Positions 42,516 through 52,716 of a stretch of DNA of 62,184 nucleotides are shown here, piece after piece (the first letter of the stretch is position 1; the number at the start of each line of letters is the position of its first letter). Source of the stretch: a virus; the IMG/VR virus record IMGVR_UViG_3300033150_000672, positions 1 through 62,184 of that record. One strand, given 5' to 3'. The position numbers and the translations under genes were made by a program. The notes beneath the pieces are model-generated. The model searched no databases and was not told the DNA's origin. It saw nothing but the letters and a program-made list of their open reading frames with translations.

Positions 42516-44794
42516 AATAATTTCACCTGCCCCATTTCATTATTTTTTGAGTGTTTCCATCCCATTGCTCTAAATATTCTTTCTAATTTTGTATCAAATA
42601 TTCGTTCAAACATTTTATTCCAATTAATAATAATTCCTTTTGGAACCTGGTCATCTCTTTCAAATGCTATTGTTCCTCTTGGTGGTTGAGGTAATTCTGG
42701 AATATATTTAACAAACAACATTTTAATTCTATCTCCTGGTTGAAACTTACAACCCAGGTATTTATTTCCATATTTAAACGCCTCAGTATATATATCACTT
42801 CTGTTGGTCTTTTTAACACTCCTTCTAATTGCTATATTACGTAAAGGATATTTTCCTTCAATCATTTCCATTTTTAGATTTTCAACATATCTTTCAACAT
42901 CTTCTTTCGTTCCATTGTCTAGAATTATTTTAAAAATATTTTTTAATGCTTCTTGTTCAATTTTTGCCGTGTCTGCTCTTTTGGTTTCAAAACCCATAAT
43001 TTTTAATGATTTATTCCAATTTCCTTCCTTGTCTTTTTCAACAATATAACCCATATATCTTTTCTTTGCAGCACCACCAGTATCTTTCACACCAAAAAAT
43101 ATTTTACTAAAAATTTTTTCAAACTGCATTAATAAGGTATGATTATCAACACCAAACTTATTAACAAATTCATTATATGATTCTGTTAATTTTTCTGCCA
43201 ACTCAGTAGCAACTTTCATTGCTTTATCATAATCACCATCAACTTCTTCTGGAATTTTCACAAAAATTGAATCTGTATCTCCATAAATAACATCAAATCC
43301 AAGTTTCTCTGCTACTTCTTTGGAATATTTAATAATTTCTCTTCCTGCCCAAGTCACAGTTGCTGCTATTTCTTGTTTAAACATTCTGAAATATGGATTT
43401 CCAAGTGCTCCATATAGACTGTTGGCAGCAACCTTCACAGCATATTGTTGAGCATAATAAGAATCATATTCTATTGTTCCTTTTTGATATTTTTTCATTT
43501 CTTTTTTTAATCTTTCACGTTCTTCCAGAAGTTTTTCACATATTATAGGACATATTCCCTTTTTACTTTTATCTAAAATCAATCCATTAATTTTAATATC
43601 TCCACTTGGGTCTAACATTTCAGGTGATAGATTCCAGGTTCTAATAATATTTGGATATAGAGATTTTAAATCTAATACAAAAACTCCTTCATGTAAACCA
43701 ACTGGTGGATTGTCAACAAAACCTCCACCATATCTTTCTCTTTTATTTTTTACTTTTTTTGGAAGAACCAATCCTAATTTTTTTGCTTCTCTTAAAAACA
43801 ATATATCATGAAATCTTGTTGCGTTAAATAAATCATCCCATTGACATCCAATAATTCTTCTCTTGGTATTATAATAATTAATAATATTTCTTTTCTCATC
43901 TAACCAAACACATAACATCACGTCTTTATAACAATAATCTAATAATAATTTTCTATCTTTATCCCATAGATTTTCCCAATCTCCTTCTACCTCGATTTTT
44001 TTATCTTTCAGTTCTTTTTGTGCTACTGAATTTAAACGATAACTATCCATTTGGGAGAAAGTTAGGTCAGTTTTATATCCCTGGAGTAAGTCAAAACTAT
44101 ATCTTCCATTGATAGTTATCCTCCAAAATGGGTCGAATTCTTCTGCTTCTACCTTTCCGTGCATAGAAATAAGGTCGACATTAACTCCAAGAAGTCTACA
44201 ACGATTAATAATGTAAGGCCAGTCAAAGCCATTTGAATTCCATCCACAAAATAAATCAAAATCAAAATCACAAATAAACCTAATAAATTTATTAAGCATA
44301 CTTCTCTCATTATTGAAATAATATGTTTTTCTTTCAATTCCTTCTCCACTTTTAGTCACCTCTTTTCGTGGTTTTTCATCTGGATGCCAGATAAATCCAT
44401 ATTGAGTTTCAGAAAAATTATCATAGCAGCAGATACAAGTTATTGGAACAGGAGTATTTACTCTGTCCAAACTTCCTGCGTTTTCAATATCCAGATAACA
44501 AACACGGAATTCATCTTCACCAATATTTTCTACTCTATCAATTAAAATTCTATTAATAAATAATATATCTGATTCAAAGGTTTCATCATATTTCTCTCTT
44601 TCTTTTTTGACTTCATATGAACTATTCACTTCTATTTTTTTTAATCTATCTCCAAAAACACTTTGATATTTTCCATTTATATCCTTCACATAAAAATATG
44701 GTATATGTTTTATTTCTTCCATAGTTCTATTTTTTTCATTATCTCTTCCAACAAGAATAATGGTATCACCACTTTTTTGGAAAATATTTATCAT
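42512..44794 (-). CDS. polB: Family B DNA polymerase with clamp-binding tail (760 aa)
   Basis: Proofreading motifs: VCYLDIENAG (ExoI, about residue 103), GWNSNGFDWPYII (ExoII) and YCYKDVMLC (ExoIII). Polymerase motifs: DLKSLYPNII (A), KVAANSLYGALG (B) and IYGDTDSIFV (C). All key acids are present, so it should be an active replicative enzyme with exonuclease. It ends NNEMGQVKLF, a sliding-clamp-binding peptide. Coupled to the HNH gene before it. Confidence 0.95.
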   Translation of the reverse strand: MINIFQKSGDTIILVGRDNEKNRTMEEIKHIPYFYVKDINGKYQSVFGDRLKKIEVNSSYEVKKEREKYDETFESDILFINRILIDRVENIGEDEFRVCYLDIENAGSLDRVNTPVPITCICCYDNFSETQYGFIWHPDEKPRKEVTKSGEGIERKTYYFNNERSMLNKFIRFICDFDFDLFCGWNSNGFDWPYIINRCRLLGVNVDLISMHGKVEAEEFDPFWRITINGRYSFDLLQGYKTDLTFSQMDSYRLNSVAQKELKDKKIEVEGDWENLWDKDRKLLLDYCYKDVMLCVWLDEKRNIINYYNTKRRIIGCQWDDLFNATRFHDILFLREAKKLGLVLPKKVKNKRERYGGGFVDNPPVGLHEGVFVLDLKSLYPNIIRTWNLSPEMLDPSGDIKINGLILDKSKKGICPIICEKLLEERERLKKEMKKYQKGTIEYDSYYAQQYAVKVAANSLYGALGNPYFRMFKQEIAATVTWAGREIIKYSKEVAEKLGFDVIYGDTDSIFVKIPEEVDGDYDKAMKVATELAEKLTESYNEFVNKFGVDNHTLLMQFEKIFSKIFFGVKDTGGAAKKRYMGYIVEKDKEGNWNKSLKIMGFETKRADTAKIEQEALKNIFKIILDNGTKEDVERYVENLKMEMIEGKYPLRNIAIRRSVKKTNRSDIYTEAFKYGNKYLGCKFQPGDRIKMLFVKYIPELPQPPRGTIAFERDDQVPKGIIINWNKMFERIFDTKLERIFRAMGWKHSKNNEMGQVKLF

Positions 44795-45210
44795 TTAAAA
44801 ACACTCCTCCAATTTTTACCATATTTTTTTATTAATTTTATATGTAACCCAGAATGATATCCTGCTGAACAAACCAAAAGATTATTTGGATTATTATTTC
44901 TTACGTTCCCATCTATATGGTGAGTAACAATAGGATATTTGACATCAATACCAGTTATTTTTTTTACGATTCTTCTGGCTATCATTTGAAAATATCCATT
45001 TTTTCCTCCTTTCCACTTAGGATTATCACAACCATTATATCTACTTTTTTTTATTTTACTCATTTTCAGTTTGGTTTTTTCTGAATGTTTCTTTCCAAAC
45101 ATTGGATTCTTCTTACCCATTCTTGCTATACGTTTCTTTTGTTTTGTTTCTTCACTATCTTTAAATCCCTTTCTTAATTTACCATATATATTTCCTTTTT
45201 GAAATACCAT
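44791..45210 (-). CDS. HNH homing endonuclease with NUMOD3 repeats (139 aa)
   Basis: Repeats of the NUMOD3 type (GKKNPMFGKKHSEKTKLKMS) precede an HNH nuclease core, VTHHIDGNVRNNNPNNLLV ending in H. A free-standing homing endonuclease: a selfish gene that copies itself to sites lacking it. Its place just before the polymerase gene suggests the polymerase region is or was its target. Confidence 0.9.
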   Translation of the reverse strand: MVFQKGNIYGKLRKGFKDSEETKQKKRIARMGKKNPMFGKKHSEKTKLKMSKIKKSRYNGCDNPKWKGGKNGYFQMIARRIVKKITGIDVKYPIVTHHIDGNVRNNNPNNLLVCSAGYHSGLHIKLIKKYGKNWRSVFK

Positions 45211-45216
45211 CTCTAA

Positions 45217-45660
45217 TCATTTATTCATCCTTTCTTGAAATTCTTTACTCATTTGATTTGCTTGATTTTGTAATTGTTGCTGTTTTTCTCTATATTCTTT
45301 TACCAATTCTTCAAATAATTTAAATCTTTTTTGTATTTCTTCATCATCTTTTGTAGCAGATTCTAGTCTATCTAACTCTTCCATTAAGGATTTCTTATTT
45401 GCCATATGATGTTCTATATTTTTAAATTGTTGATTTAAATTTTTCTTGAAGTTTTCTATTTCTTGACGCATATTTCTTTTTTTCTGTTTGATTTGATTGA
45501 TATTATTGTTGATACCTGTCAACATCTGTCTTTTTTGTTGTAATCTAGCAAACATATCTTTCTGTGTCAAAGTTTCTGTAATTGTGGTTTTAATTATATA
45601 AACCTTATCTGTTTTATCAAAACGAACATCTTGATTTTGTTCAATTTTCATTAACTCCAC
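45217..45660 (-). CDS. Coiled-coil protein (147 aa)
   Basis: After a short N-terminal strand pair, almost all 110 remaining residues form heptads rich in glutamine, lysine and glutamate (prefoldin-like in shape). It overlaps the DpdA gene by ten bases, so it could be a scaffold partner of the modification enzyme. Not a recognised family. Confidence 0.55.
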   Translation of the reverse strand: MELMKIEQNQDVRFDKTDKVYIIKTTITETLTQKDMFARLQQKRQMLTGINNNINQIKQKKRNMRQEIENFKKNLNQQFKNIEHHMANKKSLMEELDRLESATKDDEEIQKRFKLFEELVKEYREKQQQLQNQANQMSKEFQERMNK

Positions 45661-46817
45661 CTCCCAAATAATGAAATTTGTTTTTGTTTTATTTGTTTCT
45701 TATCACTTACACCAAATTTTCTCATTGCTTTTTCTAATCCTTCTTCTAAAGAATAATCAATGAAGTCAAAAGTTTTTTTCACTTCATTAATTCTTGATTG
45801 AGATTGCATAATCATAAAAGCAAACTGTTCTAACCTACTTCTGTTTTTTGCTAATATGTTATATCTTCTATTTAATTCTAAATACTGATATAGGTTATGA
45901 AGTGATAATAATGTTCCTGCTCTTGTATCTGTCCCCAACAAGTCTTTAATATCAATATGCTTACAAACTGGACAATCACATGGTAATTCATCTGTAAATT
46001 CAGGATTATATTTAGCATGAACATCACCAAATAGTAATTTTTCTCCCATAAACATTGGCATTTGATAGACTCTCATTTTATCACCAATTGAGTAGGAACT
46101 ACTATCATAAGTGATTTTAGATTTTGTTTTATGAGCAAGATAAGACAATACCGCCATCACAGCCATACCAGATGTTCCAAAATAATGCAATCCTTTTTTC
46201 TTTAATTCTCCATTAAAATATAAATATAATCCTCCTAATGCCTGGTGAAATGGATTGGCAGACAATGCACTCCCCATACCAAATCCTTCAAAATTGAAAT
46301 CTTTTATAGAATTATACCACCTATCTAATTGTTCATAATTGTAACCATGAATCACATAATACATTTTCATTCTAAAATTTTGTCTATGTTTTTCAAACAC
46401 TCTATAATTTTCTAATGATTTTTTATGACATTTTTCAAAAAATCCAGGGTTGTAATTATTAATGGTTTCAACTGTTCCAGGTGGAACATCTATACCAAAA
46501 CCAATATCACAATTATTTTCTAACCAACGTAATATTTCAATTGGTTCAATATTTATTTTCTTTCCTTTTGCTGTGAATGTTGCTATTTGAAATCCACCAC
46601 TATCTCCTAATAATATATGATGTTTAGGAAATTTCATTTTTTCTCTCCAATTGTGTCCCCAATTAATTCCATAAAATCCGCATTGAAGAGCATAATCATG
46701 TTTGAAAAAAGCATTTTCTGAAAACCAAGTCATATCAAATCCTTTATATTTAACATCTTTTTCCCAACAATAATTCATTTTTTCAGATATTGCTGGTATA
46801 TAGTGCGCGGTTCCCAT
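45651..46817 (-). CDS. dpdA: DpdA-type DNA guanine transglycosylase with clamp-binding tail (388 aa)
   Basis: Swaps guanine in DNA for a 7-deazaguanine base. TGT-superfamily features: DSGGFQIAT (72-80), ITYDSSSYS with the likely nucleophile D238, and a zinc site CDCPVC (280-285) with H307 in SLHNLYQYL. It lacks the tRNA-specific extensions and sits beside preQ0 genes. Cui et al. (2023) described a subfamily, DpdA4, confined to archaeal viruses; this is a good candidate. The last residues, QKQISLFGRWS, form a clamp-binding peptide (Q380-F384), unusual for this family. Starts at 46817. Confidence 0.88.
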   Translation of the reverse strand: MGTAHYIPAISEKMNYCWEKDVKYKGFDMTWFSENAFFKHDYALQCGFYGINWGHNWREKMKFPKHHILLGDSGGFQIATFTAKGKKINIEPIEILRWLENNCDIGFGIDVPPGTVETINNYNPGFFEKCHKKSLENYRVFEKHRQNFRMKMYYVIHGYNYEQLDRWYNSIKDFNFEGFGMGSALSANPFHQALGGLYLYFNGELKKKGLHYFGTSGMAVMAVLSYLAHKTKSKITYDSSSYSIGDKMRVYQMPMFMGEKLLFGDVHAKYNPEFTDELPCDCPVCKHIDIKDLLGTDTRAGTLLSLHNLYQYLELNRRYNILAKNRSRLEQFAFMIMQSQSRINEVKKTFDFIDYSLEEGLEKAMRKFGVSDKKQIKQKQISLFGRWS

Positions 46818-46822
46818 CCTAT

Positions 46823-47536
46823 TTACCTCCAGAGATTATACTTTTTTAAGACTTCTTTGGTTTGTGAAGTCCTTTTCATATCATACTTTCCAGCCTTCAT
46901 ATTTTTGACATATTCTGGAATTTTTTTGTATTTTGTTATATCATTATCATATTCCTCATGAATATTATTATATTCAAATGCTATCCACCTTCTAAAACAA
47001 CTTGAACATTGACCACATTGTTTCCCTTCTGATGAATAACAAGAAACTGTTCTTTTTAAATTTTCTGGGTCAAGTCCTTGGTCTAGATACCATTTTACCA
47101 TATCTGCTTTCGTCATATACCAAAATGGTGAATCAAATTTTATTGGTCTCTTCTTATCCTCCCATAAATAATTAACTAATTGTTGAGCATTTAAAAAGAA
47201 TTGTTTTGTTCTATCTGGAATGCTCATCTCTCCTTGTTGAACTATTAAGTAAACTTCATTACCATAATATGTTCCTATCATTAACAAAAACATATTTCTC
47301 ATTTGAATATTAGCATTTGGTTCCTCCCATGGTCTAATATCTAATGTCTTATCTATTATCAATTCCATACTACAGAGTTTTGCTAACTTTTCAACAGTTG
47401 TTCTTTCTTTATGAGAATATCTACTATTCAAATCAACATAGACCGCTCTTGGTTTTCCCAAATAATGCCAACCAATAAACGAATCCAATCCGCCTGAAAA
47501 CAAAATTACTTTTTTGTTTTCGTATTCTTTATGCAT
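46823..47536 (-). CDS. Second QueC-like PP-loop ATPase (237 aa)
   Basis: VILFSGGLDSFIGW (residues 10-23) is the PP-loop that adenylates a carboxylate. A C-terminal zinc site, CYSSEGKQCGQCSSCFRRW, is like that of QueC. It is shorter and lacks the W-x-PGRN segment of the canonical QueC encoded two genes upstream. A related but different substrate is likely: perhaps a second amidation or another acyl activation on the 7-position. It overlaps the HAD gene by 31 bases. Confidence 0.75.
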   Translation of the reverse strand: MHKEYENKKVILFSGGLDSFIGWHYLGKPRAVYVDLNSRYSHKERTTVEKLAKLCSMELIIDKTLDIRPWEEPNANIQMRNMFLLMIGTYYGNEVYLIVQQGEMSIPDRTKQFFLNAQQLVNYLWEDKKRPIKFDSPFWYMTKADMVKWYLDQGLDPENLKRTVSCYSSEGKQCGQCSSCFRRWIAFEYNNIHEEYDNDITKYKKIPEYVKNMKAGKYDMKRTSQTKEVLKKYNLWR

Positions 47537-47850
47537 TTTTCAGCCACCTCTTTTAATTGTTCAATTGTCAAATTTTTGTCATCAATATAATAATCTGCTA
47601 ATGGTTTTCTCATTATTAATTCATGGTATTTAACGCCATGTCTAACGAGCCATATTATCGTTACTTCTCTATCACACCAAAACCTTGAGGTATGAAGAAT
47701 TATTTCATGGCCTTTTTTATATAGAGCATTAATGATATCAATTATTTCTTTATTTGGTGTCTTTTTATCAAATACTTCTACGCCAAATCCTTCTGCTTCA
47801 TTTGTTAGAACCCCATCAATATCAAAACAAAAAGTTTTCTTTTGCTCCAT
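47506..47850 (-). CDS. HAD-superfamily phosphatase (114 aa)
   Basis: FCFDIDGVLTNEAEG holds the nucleophile-containing DxDG motif I, LHTSRF the motif II threonine/serine, and KPLADYYIDDKN the lysine and DD pair of motifs III/IV. The cap is minimal, so large substrates are possible. Candidates are a nucleotide or a phosphorylated intermediate of the base pathway; the substrate is unknown. Confidence 0.75.
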   Translation of the reverse strand: MEQKKTFCFDIDGVLTNEAEGFGVEVFDKKTPNKEIIDIINALYKKGHEIILHTSRFWCDREVTIIWLVRHGVKYHELIMRKPLADYYIDDKNLTIEQLKEVAEKCIKNTKTKK

Positions 47851-48644
47851 TAATCTACCAACTCCAAATATTTATACATCCACATATCTTTTGTGCATTT
47901 CTTTTTCAAATCTTTCAAATAAACGTTTTTAAAATAATCTGGATTTACATATTTCTGTCCATCTGGATATTTCCCTGGATATTTCTTTTCTAGCACATAG
48001 AAAGCAAATCTTCTATTACAACAACATCCGCACATCCCACACGCATCTATCTTTCCGTCATCACAAGACCAGGTATGGTTATAAACCCAACCATAACCAT
48101 TATCATATCCCCACTTTAATATTTCAACTTTATCTTTATCATAAAGTGGAGCAAAACATTTTAATGGTTTTAAACAACCATATTCTAACATTGCTGTAAA
48201 TCTATCAGCAAATTCCATGGTATTATCTGGATAAGCAGTTTCACTTGCGTTTGCTCCCCAAGTAATATATTTGGCTCCTTTGGCCTCACCTACTGCTGCT
48301 GCACAGGCCAACAAAACCACATTTCTTCCTGGAACCCATAAACCTTCTTCTGATTTTTTGATATTTGTACTCTCTTCTAAACTATCCATACCTTTCGGAA
48401 TTGGAATATCTTTCTGAGTTAAACTACTACCACCTAATTTTCCTAACCATCCACAATCAATAAAGATTGCTGGAACTCCAAGTTTTTTTGCTATAACTTC
48501 TACTGCTCTATGTTCCGGAATTTCTGCCTTCTGTTTTAAATCTATATGAAGATATATAATATCAAATCCATCCTTCAACATTTTTAGACCCATTGAAATA
48601 GAATCTAATCCTCCTGATGTTACACAAATTGCTTTTTCTTTCAT
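47850..48644 (-). CDS. queC: 7-cyano-7-deazaguanine (preQ0) synthase QueC (264 aa)
   Basis: Converts 7-carboxy-7-deazaguanine plus ammonia and ATP to preQ0. ICVTSGGLDSISMGL is the PP-loop; GLWVPGRNVVLLACAAA, TWGANASETAYPD and CGMCGCCCNRRFAF (zinc) are diagnostic for QueC. Start at 48644 (MKEKAICV) after GGGAGGAGAGGTTG. It overlaps the radical-SAM gene. Confidence 0.92.
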   Translation of the reverse strand: MKEKAICVTSGGLDSISMGLKMLKDGFDIIYLHIDLKQKAEIPEHRAVEVIAKKLGVPAIFIDCGWLGKLGGSSLTQKDIPIPKGMDSLEESTNIKKSEEGLWVPGRNVVLLACAAAVGEAKGAKYITWGANASETAYPDNTMEFADRFTAMLEYGCLKPLKCFAPLYDKDKVEILKWGYDNGYGWVYNHTWSCDDGKIDACGMCGCCCNRRFAFYVLEKKYPGKYPDGQKYVNPDYFKNVYLKDLKKKCTKDMWMYKYLELVD

Positions 48645-49654
48645 TTCAACCTCTCCTCCCAATATTTACTTCTATAATCTACTCCTTCAATTCCTAATTT
48701 ATCAATTATATATGGATATGCCCAATAGCAACCATCACATTCTTTCCATTCTTTAACAATTTCTTCTAAAGTAGAATCATTTAAATCAAAAATAGATATT
48801 TTTTTATCCAATTTTTTATAACCACATAACCTTATTGACCCATCACAATCAATTCCCATCGCCAAACTATTTAATGAACAATGAAAATTTAAATTTAAAA
48901 TATTGTCAATATTGTCAAAATATTCCAATGGTGTTTGAATGTACTTTCTATATTTATCTGGAAGACTAATTAATTTATCTTTCAACGTTTGAAGTAACTC
49001 TTGGTCACCATCTACAAAGAAAAAAGGCGACCCCTTGGTTGTGGCAAAATCCATCTTGTCTCCTTCACTCCATTCAACAAAATTTAAACCTATATGAACC
49101 TTATCCACATTATCTACAATATATTTAATAATATCAGGCACCATTTCAATATTCATACGTGATATTGTTATTAAAGCATGTGTTTCTTCTACATAATCTT
49201 GCATCTCTTGCATTCCTTTTATCGCTTCTCTTCCTTTTTTAACCAACTGTTCTCGTTGTTGTTCAACTAAATATCTGGTATCTGGTTTCCACCTTTTACT
49301 CATATAGACTTCATCAATAAAATCTATTCCACTTGACCAATTTCTTATACCTACTTTTTTTAATTTTTCTTTCAACCTTGAAAAATAGGGTTCTGGAGAT
49401 GTTGAATAAAAACCATATTCATAACCACGTTCATTCCAAAATTTAACCAATTCTACCAAATCATCTCCCATCATTAATGGTTCAGAGGCTAATATTAAAT
49501 AAAAATTTGTTCCTTTGTTCTCTAAAATTGTGAAAACTTCTTTCCATTTTTCAACTGATAATGATTTTTTTCCTGTGATTACATCACAATATGGACATTT
49601 TCTAGGACAGGTTCGATTTAAATAGATACTAACCGCTTTAGGTATATATTTCAT
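48641..49654 (-). CDS. Radical-SAM protein with C-terminal cysteine cluster (337 aa)
   Basis: LNRTCPRKCPYCDV is the CxxxCxxC iron-sulfur motif of radical-SAM enzymes. The C-terminus (FHCSLNSLAMGIDCDGSIR, RLCGYK, CDGCYWAY) resembles the SPASM-type auxiliary cluster region. This is not QueE, which is a separate gene. Substrate unknown. Embedded in the deazaguanine cluster and coupled to both neighbours, it is a candidate tailoring enzyme for the base. Confidence 0.75.
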   Translation of the reverse strand: MKYIPKAVSIYLNRTCPRKCPYCDVITGKKSLSVEKWKEVFTILENKGTNFYLILASEPLMMGDDLVELVKFWNERGYEYGFYSTSPEPYFSRLKEKLKKVGIRNWSSGIDFIDEVYMSKRWKPDTRYLVEQQREQLVKKGREAIKGMQEMQDYVEETHALITISRMNIEMVPDIIKYIVDNVDKVHIGLNFVEWSEGDKMDFATTKGSPFFFVDGDQELLQTLKDKLISLPDKYRKYIQTPLEYFDNIDNILNLNFHCSLNSLAMGIDCDGSIRLCGYKKLDKKISIFDLNDSTLEEIVKEWKECDGCYWAYPYIIDKLGIEGVDYRSKYWEERLK

Positions 49655-50316
49655 AAACCACATCCTCCATCAATTATGAAATTATGGCCCGTAAAATAAT
49701 CACCTTCTTCTATAATATATTTAACCAGTTTTCCAATTTCAATTGGTTTTCCTTCTCTTTCAATTGGTATTGTGTTAAATAATTCATCTGGTAATGTTCC
49801 TGGAACCAGATTTGTTCTAAAAAAACCGGGACTTATGGAATTAATTCTATGCCTAGGATATAGTTTGGCGAATGATTTTGTTAATGAAATCACTCCTGCT
49901 TTAGTCATTCCATAAGCAACCGTATCTGGATCTGCTCTGATTCCAGAAACAGAGGCAACATTGACCACATAACATTTTTCTTTCTGTTGACAAACTTTCC
50001 AAGTTCCAAAATAAACTGAATCTAAATTTACTCTCATTAATCTTTTATACTCTTGATATTCATCAATACCATAATTTTTTAATTCTAAATATCCTGCATT
50101 GTTTATTAATGCATCAATTTTCTTATATTCTTTTATTATATCATCCAATAATCCGACATAATTTTTTGGATTATCTAAATTCAATATATATGATTCATTA
50201 CATATTTCATCTTTTCCTCTTGATATTCCAATTGTAAACCAACCACTTTCTTTTAATTCTTTAGCAATTGCTTTACCTAATCCAGATGTTGTTCCAGTTA
50301 TAACTGCTATTTTCAT
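49651..50316 (-). CDS. Short-chain dehydrogenase/reductase (221 aa)
   Basis: ITGTTSGLGKAIA is the cofactor-binding TGxxxGxG; ALINNAGYLE, VVNVASVSG and YGMTKAGV supply NNAG, the catalytic serine and Y-x-x-x-K; NSISPGFFRTN is typical. An intact NAD(P)H oxidoreductase. Not part of the known preQ0 route; it may reduce a deazaguanine side chain or a pterin intermediate. Start at 50316 after GGAGGATTAGAA. Confidence 0.8.
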   Translation of the reverse strand: MKIAVITGTTSGLGKAIAKELKESGWFTIGISRGKDEICNESYILNLDNPKNYVGLLDDIIKEYKKIDALINNAGYLELKNYGIDEYQEYKRLMRVNLDSVYFGTWKVCQQKEKCYVVNVASVSGIRADPDTVAYGMTKAGVISLTKSFAKLYPRHRINSISPGFFRTNLVPGTLPDELFNTIPIEREGKPIEIGKLVKYIIEEGDYFTGHNFIIDGGCGL

Positions 50317-50327
50317 TTCTAATCCTC

Positions 50328-50690
50328 CTATAATTTTAAACTCATTAATACTTCCAATTTTACATCCCAATCTTTTTCCATCTCTCCTGAGACTAAATTA
50401 ACTTGAACTTCTTCTTGATAATCTTCCATCAATAAATACGCTCCTTTATTTTTATATTTTTTATTGAACCACTCTAATAGTTCTTGAGCAATTTTTTCTA
50501 ACCAAATTTCTTTTTCTTTTTTATTTTTTAATAATTCTGTAATTTTTGATTTCACATCATTTACATCAGCAAAATTTCCTTCTTTTGGTAGATATGCTAA
50601 TGAAACCATATATTTTTCACACTTTTCTTCAGATTGTGTTCCGTCTTCTGCAAACAACATTTCCTTAAATAAAACCAATGGTGTCAACAT
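50328..50690 (-). CDS. Unknown protein of the modification cluster (120 aa)
   Basis: Not recognised. Strand-helix-helix-strand order (KYMVSLAYLPKEG, KIAQELLEWFNKKY, GAYLLMEDYQEEVQVNL) is loosely like half a T-fold, the fold of FolE, QueD and QueF, but no catalytic residues can be matched. It lies two bases after the FolE gene and just before the SDR gene. Confidence 0.55.
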   Translation of the reverse strand: MLTPLVLFKEMLFAEDGTQSEEKCEKYMVSLAYLPKEGNFADVNDVKSKITELLKNKKEKEIWLEKIAQELLEWFNKKYKNKGAYLLMEDYQEEVQVNLVSGEMEKDWDVKLEVLMSLKL

Positions 50691-50691
50691 T

Positions 50692-51264
50692 TTACAAACC
50701 TCCTATTAATTTAAAAAATTCATTCCTAACTGCTAATTCTTCAAAGCATCCTTTGAATGCACTGGTTCTCATAACCGAATCTATCTTTTTAATTCCTCTC
50801 ATCTGTTCACAAAAATGTTCTCCTTCTATCACAACCATAACACCCTGAGGATTTAATTTTTCATTCAAAAAATCTGCTATTTGTTGTGTTAATTTTTCTT
50901 GAACTTGAGGACGATGAGCAAACCATTCAGCAATTCTAATAAGTTTTGATATCCCACAAATTTTTCCATTTGGTATATAACCAATATGAACTTTCATTTT
51001 AATGGGAACAAAATGATGCTCGCATGTGCTGAATATTGTGGCTGAATTTGTTATTATTTGGTCATAATTATTATGATTTTCAAATAATCTAATTCTAGGT
51101 TCTGGTTTATATAATCCTTCAAATAATTCATTATAAAACATTCTAGCAACCCTTTTTGGAGTATCTTTCAAACTATCATTTGCTAAATCTAAACCAAGTT
51201 CTTTTAAAAATTCTGCAAACTTATTACTTAATGCTGTTATTTTTTTATACTCTTGACTTACCAC
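50692..51264 (-). CDS. folE: GTP cyclohydrolase I (190 aa)
   Basis: Turns GTP into dihydroneopterin triphosphate, the first step to 7-deazaguanines. FSTCEHHFVPIKMKVHIGYI and EHFCEQMRGI carry the zinc ligands Cys, His and Cys and the catalytic histidine; FAHRPQVQEKLTQQIADFL is the conserved helix. Full length for bacterial-type FolE. Overlaps the phosphoribosyltransferase gene. Confidence 0.93.
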   Translation of the reverse strand: MVSQEYKKITALSNKFAEFLKELGLDLANDSLKDTPKRVARMFYNELFEGLYKPEPRIRLFENHNNYDQIITNSATIFSTCEHHFVPIKMKVHIGYIPNGKICGISKLIRIAEWFAHRPQVQEKLTQQIADFLNEKLNPQGVMVVIEGEHFCEQMRGIKKIDSVMRTSAFKGCFEELAVRNEFFKLIGGL

Positions 51265-51679
51265 CTTTATCCCTCCTATCTCTATCTCTCATCATTATTG
51301 ACAAATCTTTATCCCAAGGAAAAACCACCCAAACATCTTTTGGATATTTTCTAGCAAAAAATTTTGGAATTACTTTTGTTCCTTCTTTATAACATATACA
51401 AACCGTATCAAACCTTCTTAAATAATATAACGTTTCTCCTGAATCACTGATATCATCTACTACCAATGTTTTTTTATCTGGATAAAAATCATCTGTGTTG
51501 GTATAGATATCCATTATATCTAATTGGTAAGCCAGGTGTGTTGCTGGAATTAATCCTCCTCTCTTGATTGTATAAATTTTATCATATTCTTTTCCACTTT
51601 CTTTTATCTGTTTAATTATTGACCTCATATTAATAGAATATTGAGACCAATTCATAAATTCACGTCGTTTTTTTGTCAT
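51245..51679 (-). CDS. Phosphoribosyltransferase, Gpt/Xpt-like (144 aa)
   Basis: TLVVDDISDSGETLY is the 13-residue PRPP-binding loop of type I purine phosphoribosyltransferases, and YTIKRGGLIPATHLAY the first loop; similar in size to xanthine-guanine enzymes. Sitting between QueE and FolE, it may recycle the guanine released by DpdA into GMP, and so to GTP for FolE. That link is inference. Confidence 0.75.
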   Translation of the reverse strand: MTKKRREFMNWSQYSINMRSIIKQIKESGKEYDKIYTIKRGGLIPATHLAYQLDIMDIYTNTDDFYPDKKTLVVDDISDSGETLYYLRRFDTVCICYKEGTKVIPKFFARKYPKDVWVVFPWDKDLSIMMRDRDRRDKGGKSRV

Positions 51680-51680
51680 T

Positions 51681-52322
51681 TTATTTACCTCTTTTATTAT
51701 ACCATACCAATTGATGCAACCGTGGAGAAAATTTCTTTCTATGTTTTACACAATATTCCCAAACCTTTTTTGAAATGGTTTTATCTCTTTTGGCAGCATA
51801 GGTGGTTAATGGCATTAACATTGTTGCTATATCTAACATATCAGTTCCAACATCTCTTAAGTTTGTAACAACTTTGATATCGTAAAAACCAGAACCTCTC
51901 ATTATTTCTTTAATTGCCTTTGCCGTGGTTAGGTCTTTAGGACTGAATGCTACATAATAAAAATTTTTAAAAAAATAATCATAGTCTAATATTGTTCCAT
52001 TGGTTTCTAAATGATGGTCTTTTCTGGTTATTCCTTTTTCTATCATTATTTTTATAACTTCTTCTATAGCACTTCTTTGTAACATTGGTTCACCACCAGT
52101 CCAAATGACTATTTTTTGTTCTGAATCTATTAATTTTAATGCTAATTCTTCTGGAGATAATATCCAATTTGTTTTATTGTGATATTTTGTATCACAATAT
52201 TCACAATTCAAATTACATCCACTTAATCTAACAAATATGGCTGGATATCCAACATATCTTCCTTCTCCTTGTATGCTTTCAAAAACTTCTGATATTCTTA
52301 ATTTAGTCAATTTTATCACCAT
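51681..52322 (-). CDS. queE: 7-carboxy-7-deazaguanine synthase QueE (213 aa)
   Basis: Radical-SAM ring contraction of carboxy-tetrahydropterin. VFESIQGEGRYVGYPAIFVR is the conserved start; LSGCNLNCEYCDT has the CxxxCxxC cluster; VIWTGGEPMLQ is the GGEP motif. Full length. The end overlaps nothing; the start overlaps QueD by 20 bases. Confidence 0.93.
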   Translation of the reverse strand: MVIKLTKLRISEVFESIQGEGRYVGYPAIFVRLSGCNLNCEYCDTKYHNKTNWILSPEELALKLIDSEQKIVIWTGGEPMLQRSAIEEVIKIMIEKGITRKDHHLETNGTILDYDYFFKNFYYVAFSPKDLTTAKAIKEIMRGSGFYDIKVVTNLRDVGTDMLDIATMLMPLTTYAAKRDKTISKKVWEYCVKHRKKFSPRLHQLVWYNKRGK

Positions 52323-52716
52323 AAATTACACTACAACCTGGACTTTCCCATAGTTCAACACTTATTTTTTGAATGTTATCTCCTAAGGTTTCATTTAATA
52401 ATTTAAATATTTCTATTGCTAAATTTTCTGCTGTTGGTTCTCTTTTTTCCAAAATTCTAATACTCATTTTCATTCTATCCAACATTTCAACCAATTCGAT
52501 ATTTTCTGGAGAATCACTTAAAATTATTGTGTGGTCAAATAAATCAATTATTTCTTTGATTTTTTTAAAATCAATCATCATACCAGTATTTGCTAAAGGT
52601 CTTCCTTTCAATATTATTTTTATATTCCATCTATGTCCATGAACATTTTTGCATGCACCGTTGTAATGTGCTAATCTATGTGCTGCATCAAAATGATATT
52701 CAACAGTTTCAATCAA
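52303..52716 (-). CDS. queD: 6-carboxy-tetrahydropterin synthase QueD (137 aa)
   Basis: T-fold enzyme of the second preQ0 step. HFDAAHRLAHYNGACKNVHGH gives the zinc histidines and catalytic cysteine; FDHTIIL, EPTAENLA and LWESPGCS are the other conserved blocks. Overlaps the preceding clamp-loader-partner gene by four bases. Confidence 0.92.
   Translation of the reverse strand: MIETVEYHFDAAHRLAHYNGACKNVHGHRWNIKIILKGRPLANTGMMIDFKKIKEIIDLFDHTIILSDSPENIELVEMLDRMKMSIRILEKREPTAENLAIEIFKLLNETLGDNIQKISVELWESPGCSVIYGDKID

What the first reader, a model, noticed from the sequence alone, without database searches (positions are those of the whole stretch)
45651..52716. Archaeal-virus DNA 7-deazaguanine system with several extra tailoring enzymes
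One uninterrupted minus-strand run encodes FolE, QueD, QueE and QueC (GTP to preQ0) and a DpdA-type transglycosylase that can put the base into DNA. Known phage 7-deazaguanine sets (Hutinet 2019; Cui 2023) do not require the interleaved SDR, second radical-SAM protein, second QueC-like ATPase, HAD phosphatase and phosphoribosyltransferase. No QueF, QueF-L or ArcS homologue is visible. The extra genes are translationally coupled to the core genes, so the final base may be a new derivative beyond preQ0.
Basis: partly seen in the sequence, partly recalled or inferred. Interest (0 to 1): 0.92.

Follow-up and report, generated by a model that had tools for sequence, protein, structure and literature searches.

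The report
Viral cassette for elaborated deazaguanine DNA
A virus with archaeal-type replication genes carries a tightly packed gene set that makes a guanine look-alike and puts it into DNA, and the same order of unusual extra enzymes recurs in unrelated viruses, so these viruses probably build a more complex DNA base than those reported in the papers I could read.

Summary
An 11-gene minus-strand run (45651-52716) encodes QueD, QueE, a purine phosphoribosyltransferase (PRT), FolE, an unknown protein (u120), an SDR, a MoaA/BlsE-like radical-SAM protein (rSAM2), QueC1, a HAD phosphatase, QueC2 and a zinc-type DpdA. Most junctions overlap or abut. No QueF, ArcS or glutaminase domain was found in the record.

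The interpretation needs sorting. PRT, HAD and QueC2 are not odd extras: they recur in dozens of viral 7-deazaguanine cassettes, HAD is fused to QueC2 in four loci, and QueC2 is often the only QueC. The unusual core is rSAM2 + SDR + QueC1, a Gat-QueC-like ATPase without the glutaminase.

Separate scans with rSAM2, QueC1 and SDR each landed inside 7-deazaguanine cassettes. Two lineages keep the window's order: QueD-QueE-FolE-SDR-rSAM2-GatQueC-HAD-QueC2-DpdA (L189/L190), and QueD-QueE-FolE-rSAM2-methyltransferases-QueC1-HAD-QueC2-DpdA (L191; QueC1 62% identical).

Best reading: a conserved tailoring pathway making a 7-deazaguanine beyond preQ0 for DNA. The product is untested; simple dPreQ0 or dG+ is not excluded. 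The host is probably, not provably, archaeal. New variant of a known kind.

The parts
52303..52716 (-). QueD (6-carboxytetrahydropterin synthase)
   Evidence: Pfam PTPS 6.4e-31; short CxxxHGH motif read by eye
51681..52322 (-). QueE (7-carboxy-7-deazaguanine synthase, radical SAM)
   Evidence: phrog_2076 QueE 1.2e-35; Radical_SAM 1.1e-15
51245..51679 (-). Purine phosphoribosyltransferase (xanthine-guanine type), proposed guanine salvage
   Evidence: Pribosyltran 2e-9; PRK09177 3.8e-16, below cut-off; matches solved xanthine-guanine PRTs; recurrent next to FolE
50692..51264 (-). FolE (GTP cyclohydrolase I)
   Evidence: GTP_cyclohydroI 1.8e-58; TIGR00063 above cut-off
50328..50690 (-). u120, protein of unknown function
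   Evidence: No significant family match; no relative in the fetched loci
49651..50316 (-). SDR oxidoreductase (start set to the ATG at 50316)
   Evidence: adh_short 4e-30; start context; 40% identical SDR at the same position in L189/L190
48641..49654 (-). rSAM2, radical-SAM protein with a C-terminal conserved Cys set (twitch/SPASM-like)
   Evidence: Radical_SAM 6.6e-8; relatives in L134, L182, L184, L185, L189, L191; fold like viperin/BlsE/MoaA; ATGA overlap with SDR and QueC1
47850..48644 (-). QueC1, QueC-family ATPase of Gat-QueC affinity without a glutaminase domain
   Evidence: PF06508 3.6e-43; nearest phage hits are Gat-QueC; groups with Gat-QueC at moderate support; 62% identical protein in L191
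47506..47850 (-). Small HAD phosphatase, partner of QueC2
   Evidence: phrog_1238 5.1e-25; HAD fused to QueC2 in L134, L171, L182, L184
46823..47536 (-). QueC2, member of the viral DpdA-linked QueC clade
   Evidence: PF06508 8.3e-21; 100/100 clade; motifs; DpdA-type gene within 3 kb in 49 of 55 loci
45651..46817 (-). DpdA, DNA-guanine transglycosylase of the zinc-binding TGT type
   Evidence: PF01702 6.8e-7, 29.1 bits over a 26.3 cut-off; D72, D238 and CxCxxC...H

Best explanation
This is a viral 7-deazaguanine DNA-modification operon with a conserved tailoring module. Supported by homology: FolE, QueD and QueE convert GTP to 7-carboxy-7-deazaguanine (CDG); QueC-family ATPases adenylate the C7 carboxyl and turn it into the amide or nitrile; DpdA exchanges guanine in DNA for the finished base. 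Inferred: (a) QueC2 with its HAD partner is this virus type's standard QueC step, giving ADG or preQ0. (b) QueC1, a Gat-QueC relative without its glutaminase, adds a nitrogen group to the activated base or nitrile. (c) rSAM2 and SDR (methyltransferases stand in the SDR's place in L191) then reshape that side chain. (d) PRT returns the guanine released by DpdA to GMP, feeding FolE again. Steps (a)-(d) and the product's structure are not shown, nor is whether tailoring happens on the free base or in DNA.
For: Contiguous overlapping operon with every core enzyme. rSAM2-profile, SDR-only and QueC1-only scans of 2.9 million viral contigs gave L182, L184, L185, L189/L190 and L191, every one in a 7-deazaguanine locus. 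L189 and L191 keep the gene order with 26-62% identity per protein. The QueC2 proteins of window, L189 and L191 form their own 98/96 clade, so the cassettes share ancestry. HAD::QueC2 fusions. The QueC1 position in L189 holds a real Gat-QueC (GATase_6 4.7e-8 plus QueC 1.8e-28). rSAM2 fold nearest to nucleotide-acting radical-SAM enzymes.
Against: No chemistry was measured. rSAM2 and SDR have no equivalog match and no homologue of known substrate. SDR is shared with one other lineage only, and is absent from L134, L182, L184, L185 and L002. QueC1's grouping with Gat-QueC is only moderately supported (86/61), and it lacks the glutaminase. QueC2 lacks residues that are essential in E. coli QueC (PMC13329287), so its reaction is uncertain.
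Confidence: 0.66

Rival explanations
1. Ordinary end product: the cassette makes dPreQ0 or dG+ (archaeosine). QueC2 makes preQ0 and QueC1 acts as a Gat-QueC using free ammonia. rSAM2 and SDR are accessory, for instance redox support or a RaSEA-like trimming step that still ends in G+.
For: QueC1 is nearest to Gat-QueC and L189 has a Gat-QueC in its place. Gat-QueC with DpdA gives dG+ in phage 9g (PMC6884629). In Euryarchaea ArcS adds lysine to preQ0 on the way to G+ (PMC11298593 abstract), so G+ can be reached by an indirect route.
Against: Known dG+ phages need no rSAM2, SDR or second QueC. L185 and L191 add methyltransferases and L134/L182/L184 a glycosyltransferase beside rSAM2, which a plain G+ route would not need.
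Confidence: 0.2
2. QueC2 (or QueC1) is a protein deazaguanylase, like Cap9 and QatC, used by the virus for host or defence interaction and not for the DNA base.
For: QueC2 lacks the small-molecule motifs YxQxHxxE and YPDC and has a weak QatC match.
Against: QueC2 is the only PF06508 protein in several DpdA/QueD/QueE/FolE records, which then need it for the base. No CD-NTase, QatA or QatD partner was seen among the cassette proteins.
Confidence: 0.07
3. Nucleotide route: PRT turns the free deazaguanine base into a nucleotide, HAD and other enzymes process it, and the viral polymerase inserts it, with DpdA secondary.
For: PRT overlaps FolE here and in other viruses. Campylobacter phages lacking DpdA carry dADG, and a modified-dGTP route has been proposed for them (PMC6884629).
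Against: DpdA is present with its catalytic motifs. PRT resembles guanine-salvage enzymes. No deoxynucleotide-forming partner is seen in the cassette.
Confidence: 0.06

Closest known systems
Phage dG+/dPreQ0 pathways: phage 9g (Gat-QueC), CAjan, Rosebush (Hutinet 2019, PMC6884629)
   Same: FolE, QueD, QueE, a QueC-family ATPase and DpdA in one cluster; QueC1 is nearest to Gat-QueC.
   Different: Two QueC-type ATPases from different clades, no glutaminase domain, plus rSAM2, SDR, HAD and PRT.
Canonical QueC (PF06508 cluster 1, PMC13329287)
   Same: SGGxDS loop, an RN motif and a zinc Cys set in both proteins.
   Different: QueC1: YPDN for YPDC and SCD for SCY. QueC2: no YxQxHxxE and no YPDC.
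QatC and Cap9 (defence QueC-family proteins)
   Same: QueC2 shows weak similarity to QatC and Cap9.
   Different: No Qat or CBASS partner genes seen in the cassette; QueC2 is linked to DpdA and CDG synthesis.
MoaA, BlsE, viperin (radical-SAM enzymes on nucleotides or nucleoside sugars)
   Same: Fold and radical-SAM motif of rSAM2; conserved C-terminal Cys set.
   Different: At most 18% identity in the fold matches; no equivalog match; genomic context is 7-deazaguanine.
AprD4/AprD3 (radical-SAM dehydratase plus reductase, PMC5461906)
   Same: An adjacent radical-SAM/oxidoreductase pair, a precedent for paired side-chain chemistry; a lead only.
   Different: No sequence link was tested; AprD4/AprD3 act on aminoglycoside sugars.

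Membership tests
Viral 7-deazaguanine DNA-modification systems | FolE, QueD, QueE and a QueC-family ATPase encoded together | tested here: met
Viral 7-deazaguanine DNA-modification systems | DpdA/TGT-type transglycosylase with catalytic Asp residues | tested here: met
   PF01702 above cut-off; D72, D238, Zn motif
Viral 7-deazaguanine DNA-modification systems | 7-deazaguanine base present in virion DNA | not testable with these tools
   Needs LC-MS of DNA
Canonical QueC, for QueC1 | YPDC and SCY (Y131, Y189 of E. coli QueC) | tested here: not met
   YPDN keeps the Tyr but not the Cys; SCD replaces SCY; conserved in L191
Canonical QueC, for QueC2 | YxQxHxxE and YPDC motifs | tested here: not met
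   YVDLNSRYSHKE and IPDR instead; clade-wide
Gat-QueC, for QueC1 | QueC domain grouping with Gat-QueC | tested here: inconclusive
   Nearest phage hits are Gat-QueC; 86/61 support; AU test does not reject one clade, p 0.53
Gat-QueC, for QueC1 | N-terminal class-II glutaminase domain | tested here: not met
   No GATase_6 in the record; present in the L189 counterpart
QueF/QueF-L or ArcS route | QueF or ArcS domain encoded | tested here: not met
QatABCD or type IV CBASS, for QueC2 | Cognate partner genes (QatA/B/D or CD-NTase) next to the QueC-like gene | tested here: not met
   None among the ten cassette proteins scanned with PADLOC and Pfam; the rest of the record was only partly scanned
AprD4/AprD3-type radical-SAM plus reductase pair | Coupled dehydratase/reductase activity on one substrate | not testable with these tools
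   Only adjacency and ATGA overlap seen

The most novel reading that the evidence does not exclude
Viruses of apparently both archaeal and bacterial type share a pathway in which a Gat-QueC-type enzyme, a radical-SAM enzyme and an SDR (or methyltransferases) build a C7 side chain on 7-deazaguanine that is in none of the known DNA bases (preQ0, preQ1, G+, ADG, CDG, DG and their simple derivatives), and different DpdA types insert it.
Probability: 0.55. Interest if true: 0.86.

Novelty: new variant of a known kind. Interest (0 to 1): 0.74.

Why it matters
7-Deazaguanine bases shield viral DNA from host restriction. A conserved tailoring module with a radical-SAM enzyme would widen the known chemistry of DNA bases, give a concrete set of genes to express and assay, and define a large viral QueC subfamily (QueC2, sometimes fused to a HAD phosphatase) whose active site departs from the canonical QueC substrate motifs and whose reaction is open. 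The same gene order with two very different DpdA types would let one ask directly how base-making and base-inserting modules are exchanged between viruses.

Tried and rejected
Single-sequence searches with rSAM2 in IMG/VR, phages, plasmids, reference genomes and 395 genomes of two phyla found no convincing relative. Relatives appeared only by way of QueC2 neighbours and then two-to-four-sequence profiles.

The single-sequence fold of rSAM2 was useless (pLDDT 42); the five-sequence fold was usable (pLDDT 68, pTM 0.73).

I first took QueC1 for the ordinary QueC and QueC2 for the extra one; the trees and neighbourhoods reversed that.

QueC1/QueC2 as sister copies from a recent duplication: rejected (AU p 0.0009). 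With the smaller sampling, QueC1 grouping with the whole QueC2 clade was not rejected (p 0.13).

Pterin (BH4-like) chemistry for FolE/PTPS/SDR: not pursued, because QueD carries the short CxxxHGH motif and QueE, QueC and DpdA are present.

A PIG-L-like deacetylase and a glycosyltransferase that I read by eye in L185 were not supported by Pfam, so I do not claim them.

The 'SDR' labels printed are a script artefact (stale table); SDR absence from those records was checked separately.

Cui 2023 (gkad657) and the 2024 MMBR review are not held, so novelty against them rests on memory.
Full report
WHAT IS THERE. The window (a 62,184-base IMG/VR virus record) is a tailed virus with TerL and portal-like genes. 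Its family-B polymerase and RFC-small-subunit-like clamp loader, together with a PCNA-like gene (matched here only to its counterpart in L002), suggest an archaeal host; this is not proven. The run from 52716 down to 45651 on the minus strand encodes QueD, QueE, PRT, FolE, u120, SDR, rSAM2, QueC1, HAD, QueC2 and DpdA. With starts placed behind ribosome-binding sites, neighbouring genes overlap or lie at most 11 bases apart; SDR/rSAM2 and rSAM2/QueC1 share ATGA overlaps. DpdA keeps the two presumed catalytic aspartates and the zinc motif. QueF, the ArcS domain and a glutaminase domain are absent from the record.

PRT, HAD AND QueC2 ARE REGULAR COMPANIONS. A DpdA profile scan fetched 80 viral loci. 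Among 105 loci held by then, a guanine-type PRT was found in 33, often overlapping or abutting FolE. QueC2-type genes form a separate clade with full support and lie within 3 kb of a DpdA-type gene in 49 of 55 loci, usually with QueD, QueE and FolE. The four DpdA-like genes checked there match the phage queuine tRNA-ribosyltransferase family phrog_887. QueC2 is the only PF06508 match in the records of L002, L086, L087 and L088, although L002 also holds a divergent 427-aa relative. A HAD domain is fused to QueC2 in L134, L171, L182 and L184. HAD and PRT stand next to pathway genes more often than random gene positions would (10/12 versus 4.0 expected, p about 0.0003; 18/38 versus 9.5, p about 0.002), while PolB and RFC do not. 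These loci are not dereplicated, so the p values are rough.

THE UNUSUAL MODULE IS REAL AND CONSERVED. With rSAM2 alone nothing was found. One relative turned up beside a QueC2::HAD fusion in L134. Profiles built from it gave three more distinct relatives in IMG/VR, L182, L184 and L185. All four lie in 7-deazaguanine loci: rSAM2, a glycosyltransferase-like gene, QueC2::HAD and a DpdA-like gene in L134, L182 and L184, and QueD-QueE-FolE-rSAM2-methyltransferase-QueC...DpdA-like in L185. Scans with SDR alone and with QueC1 alone then found L189/L190 and L191. L189 reads QueD-QueE-FolE-SDR-rSAM2-GatQueC-HAD-QueC2-DpdA. L191 reads QueD-QueE-FolE-rSAM2-methyltransferases-QueC1-HAD-QueC2-DpdA. Identities to the window are 29-30% for rSAM2, 41-45% for QueC2, 36% for HAD, 41% for SDR (L189) and 62% for QueC1 (L191). 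In L189 the QueC1 position holds a QueC fused to a glutaminase domain. The DpdA of L189 and L191 is the smaller phage type without the window's zinc motif, so the base-making module has been combined with two DpdA types.

WHAT THE ENZYMES MAY DO. QueC1 groups with Gat-QueC at moderate support (86/61), carries PDN as Gat-QueC does, and lacks both the YPDC cysteine and the SCY tyrosine. That tyrosine is essential in E. coli QueC (PMC13329287). QueC2 lacks YxQxHxxE and YPDC but keeps SCY and the zinc cysteines. The two are not sister duplicates (AU p 0.0009). rSAM2 has the radical-SAM CxxxCxxC and a conserved C-terminal Cys set. Its profile matches MoaA best among solved structures, and its model (pTM 0.73) resembles viperin, BlsE and MoaA, enzymes acting on nucleotides or nucleoside sugars. 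The SDR is generic. The AprD4/AprD3 pair is a precedent for a radical-SAM enzyme working with a reductase (PMC5461906); it is cited as a lead only. PRT resembles xanthine-guanine PRT, which fits salvage of the guanine that DpdA releases; this is inference.

VERDICT. It must be narrowed to rSAM2, SDR or methyltransferase, and QueC1, since PRT, HAD and QueC2 are common. The product stays open. A base beyond preQ0 is favoured; archaeosine-type dG+ is the main alternative, because QueC1 is Gat-QueC-like and 9g Gat-QueC with DpdA yields dG+ (PMC6884629). The papers I could search do not describe such a module, but the two most relevant later papers are not held.

Noticed in passing
L090:435-2213; L189:3048-4655; L088:10695-12893: QueE in L090 and L189 is interrupted right after its CxxxCxxC motif by a HINT/intein-like insert (PT-HINT 5.7e-7 in L189; read by eye in L090), and the DpdA-like gene of L088 carries an intein with a LAGLIDADG domain.
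   Followed up: partly
L134:4558-5340; L182:3617-4408; L184:12135-12938: A family-2-like glycosyltransferase gene sits between rSAM2 and QueC2::HAD in all three loci (Glycos_transf_2 5e-9 in L182; phrog glycosyltransferase 6e-7 in L134), which hints at glycosylated deazaguanine in those phages.
   Followed up: partly
L132 (Xanthomonas phage PhiXhv-15) 673-3666: A Gat-QueC gene is followed by genes annotated as a GlcNAc-malate deacetylase and a glycoside transferase, another possible sugar-bearing deazaguanine system.
   Followed up: no
L002:8454-9737: A 427-aa second QueC-like ATPase (SGGKES loop, CGxCxxC) lies between QueC2 and DpdA in the virus with the closest DpdA.
   Followed up: partly
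L140:7448-7888 and alike genes in L146, L150, L163: By eye, a QueT-like precursor transporter lies near a DpdA-like gene and QueC2 in phages without QueD, QueE and FolE in the fetched stretch, suggesting salvage of the base precursor.
   Followed up: no
L185:9719-10303: The QueC of this rSAM2 locus keeps YGQKH, VPARN and PDC but ends before the zinc Cys motif; it may be truncated or frameshifted.
   Followed up: no
window 44791-45210: A NUMOD3/HNH homing-endonuclease-like gene sits between the cassette and PolB.
   Followed up: no
L004, L005, L016, L024, L041 and alike: Many PolB/RFC-type viruses carry DpdA, QueD, QueE, FolE and often PRT but no QueC in the fetched locus; none was found in the records of L005, L016 and L041, which fits CDG or a host-supplied step.
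   Followed up: partly
BFVD A0A8S5QS09 (Myoviridae sp. ctgXL3): A 571-aa phage protein named 7-cyano-7-deazaguanine synthase matched the rSAM2 model by fold, perhaps a radical-SAM/QueC fusion.
   Followed up: no
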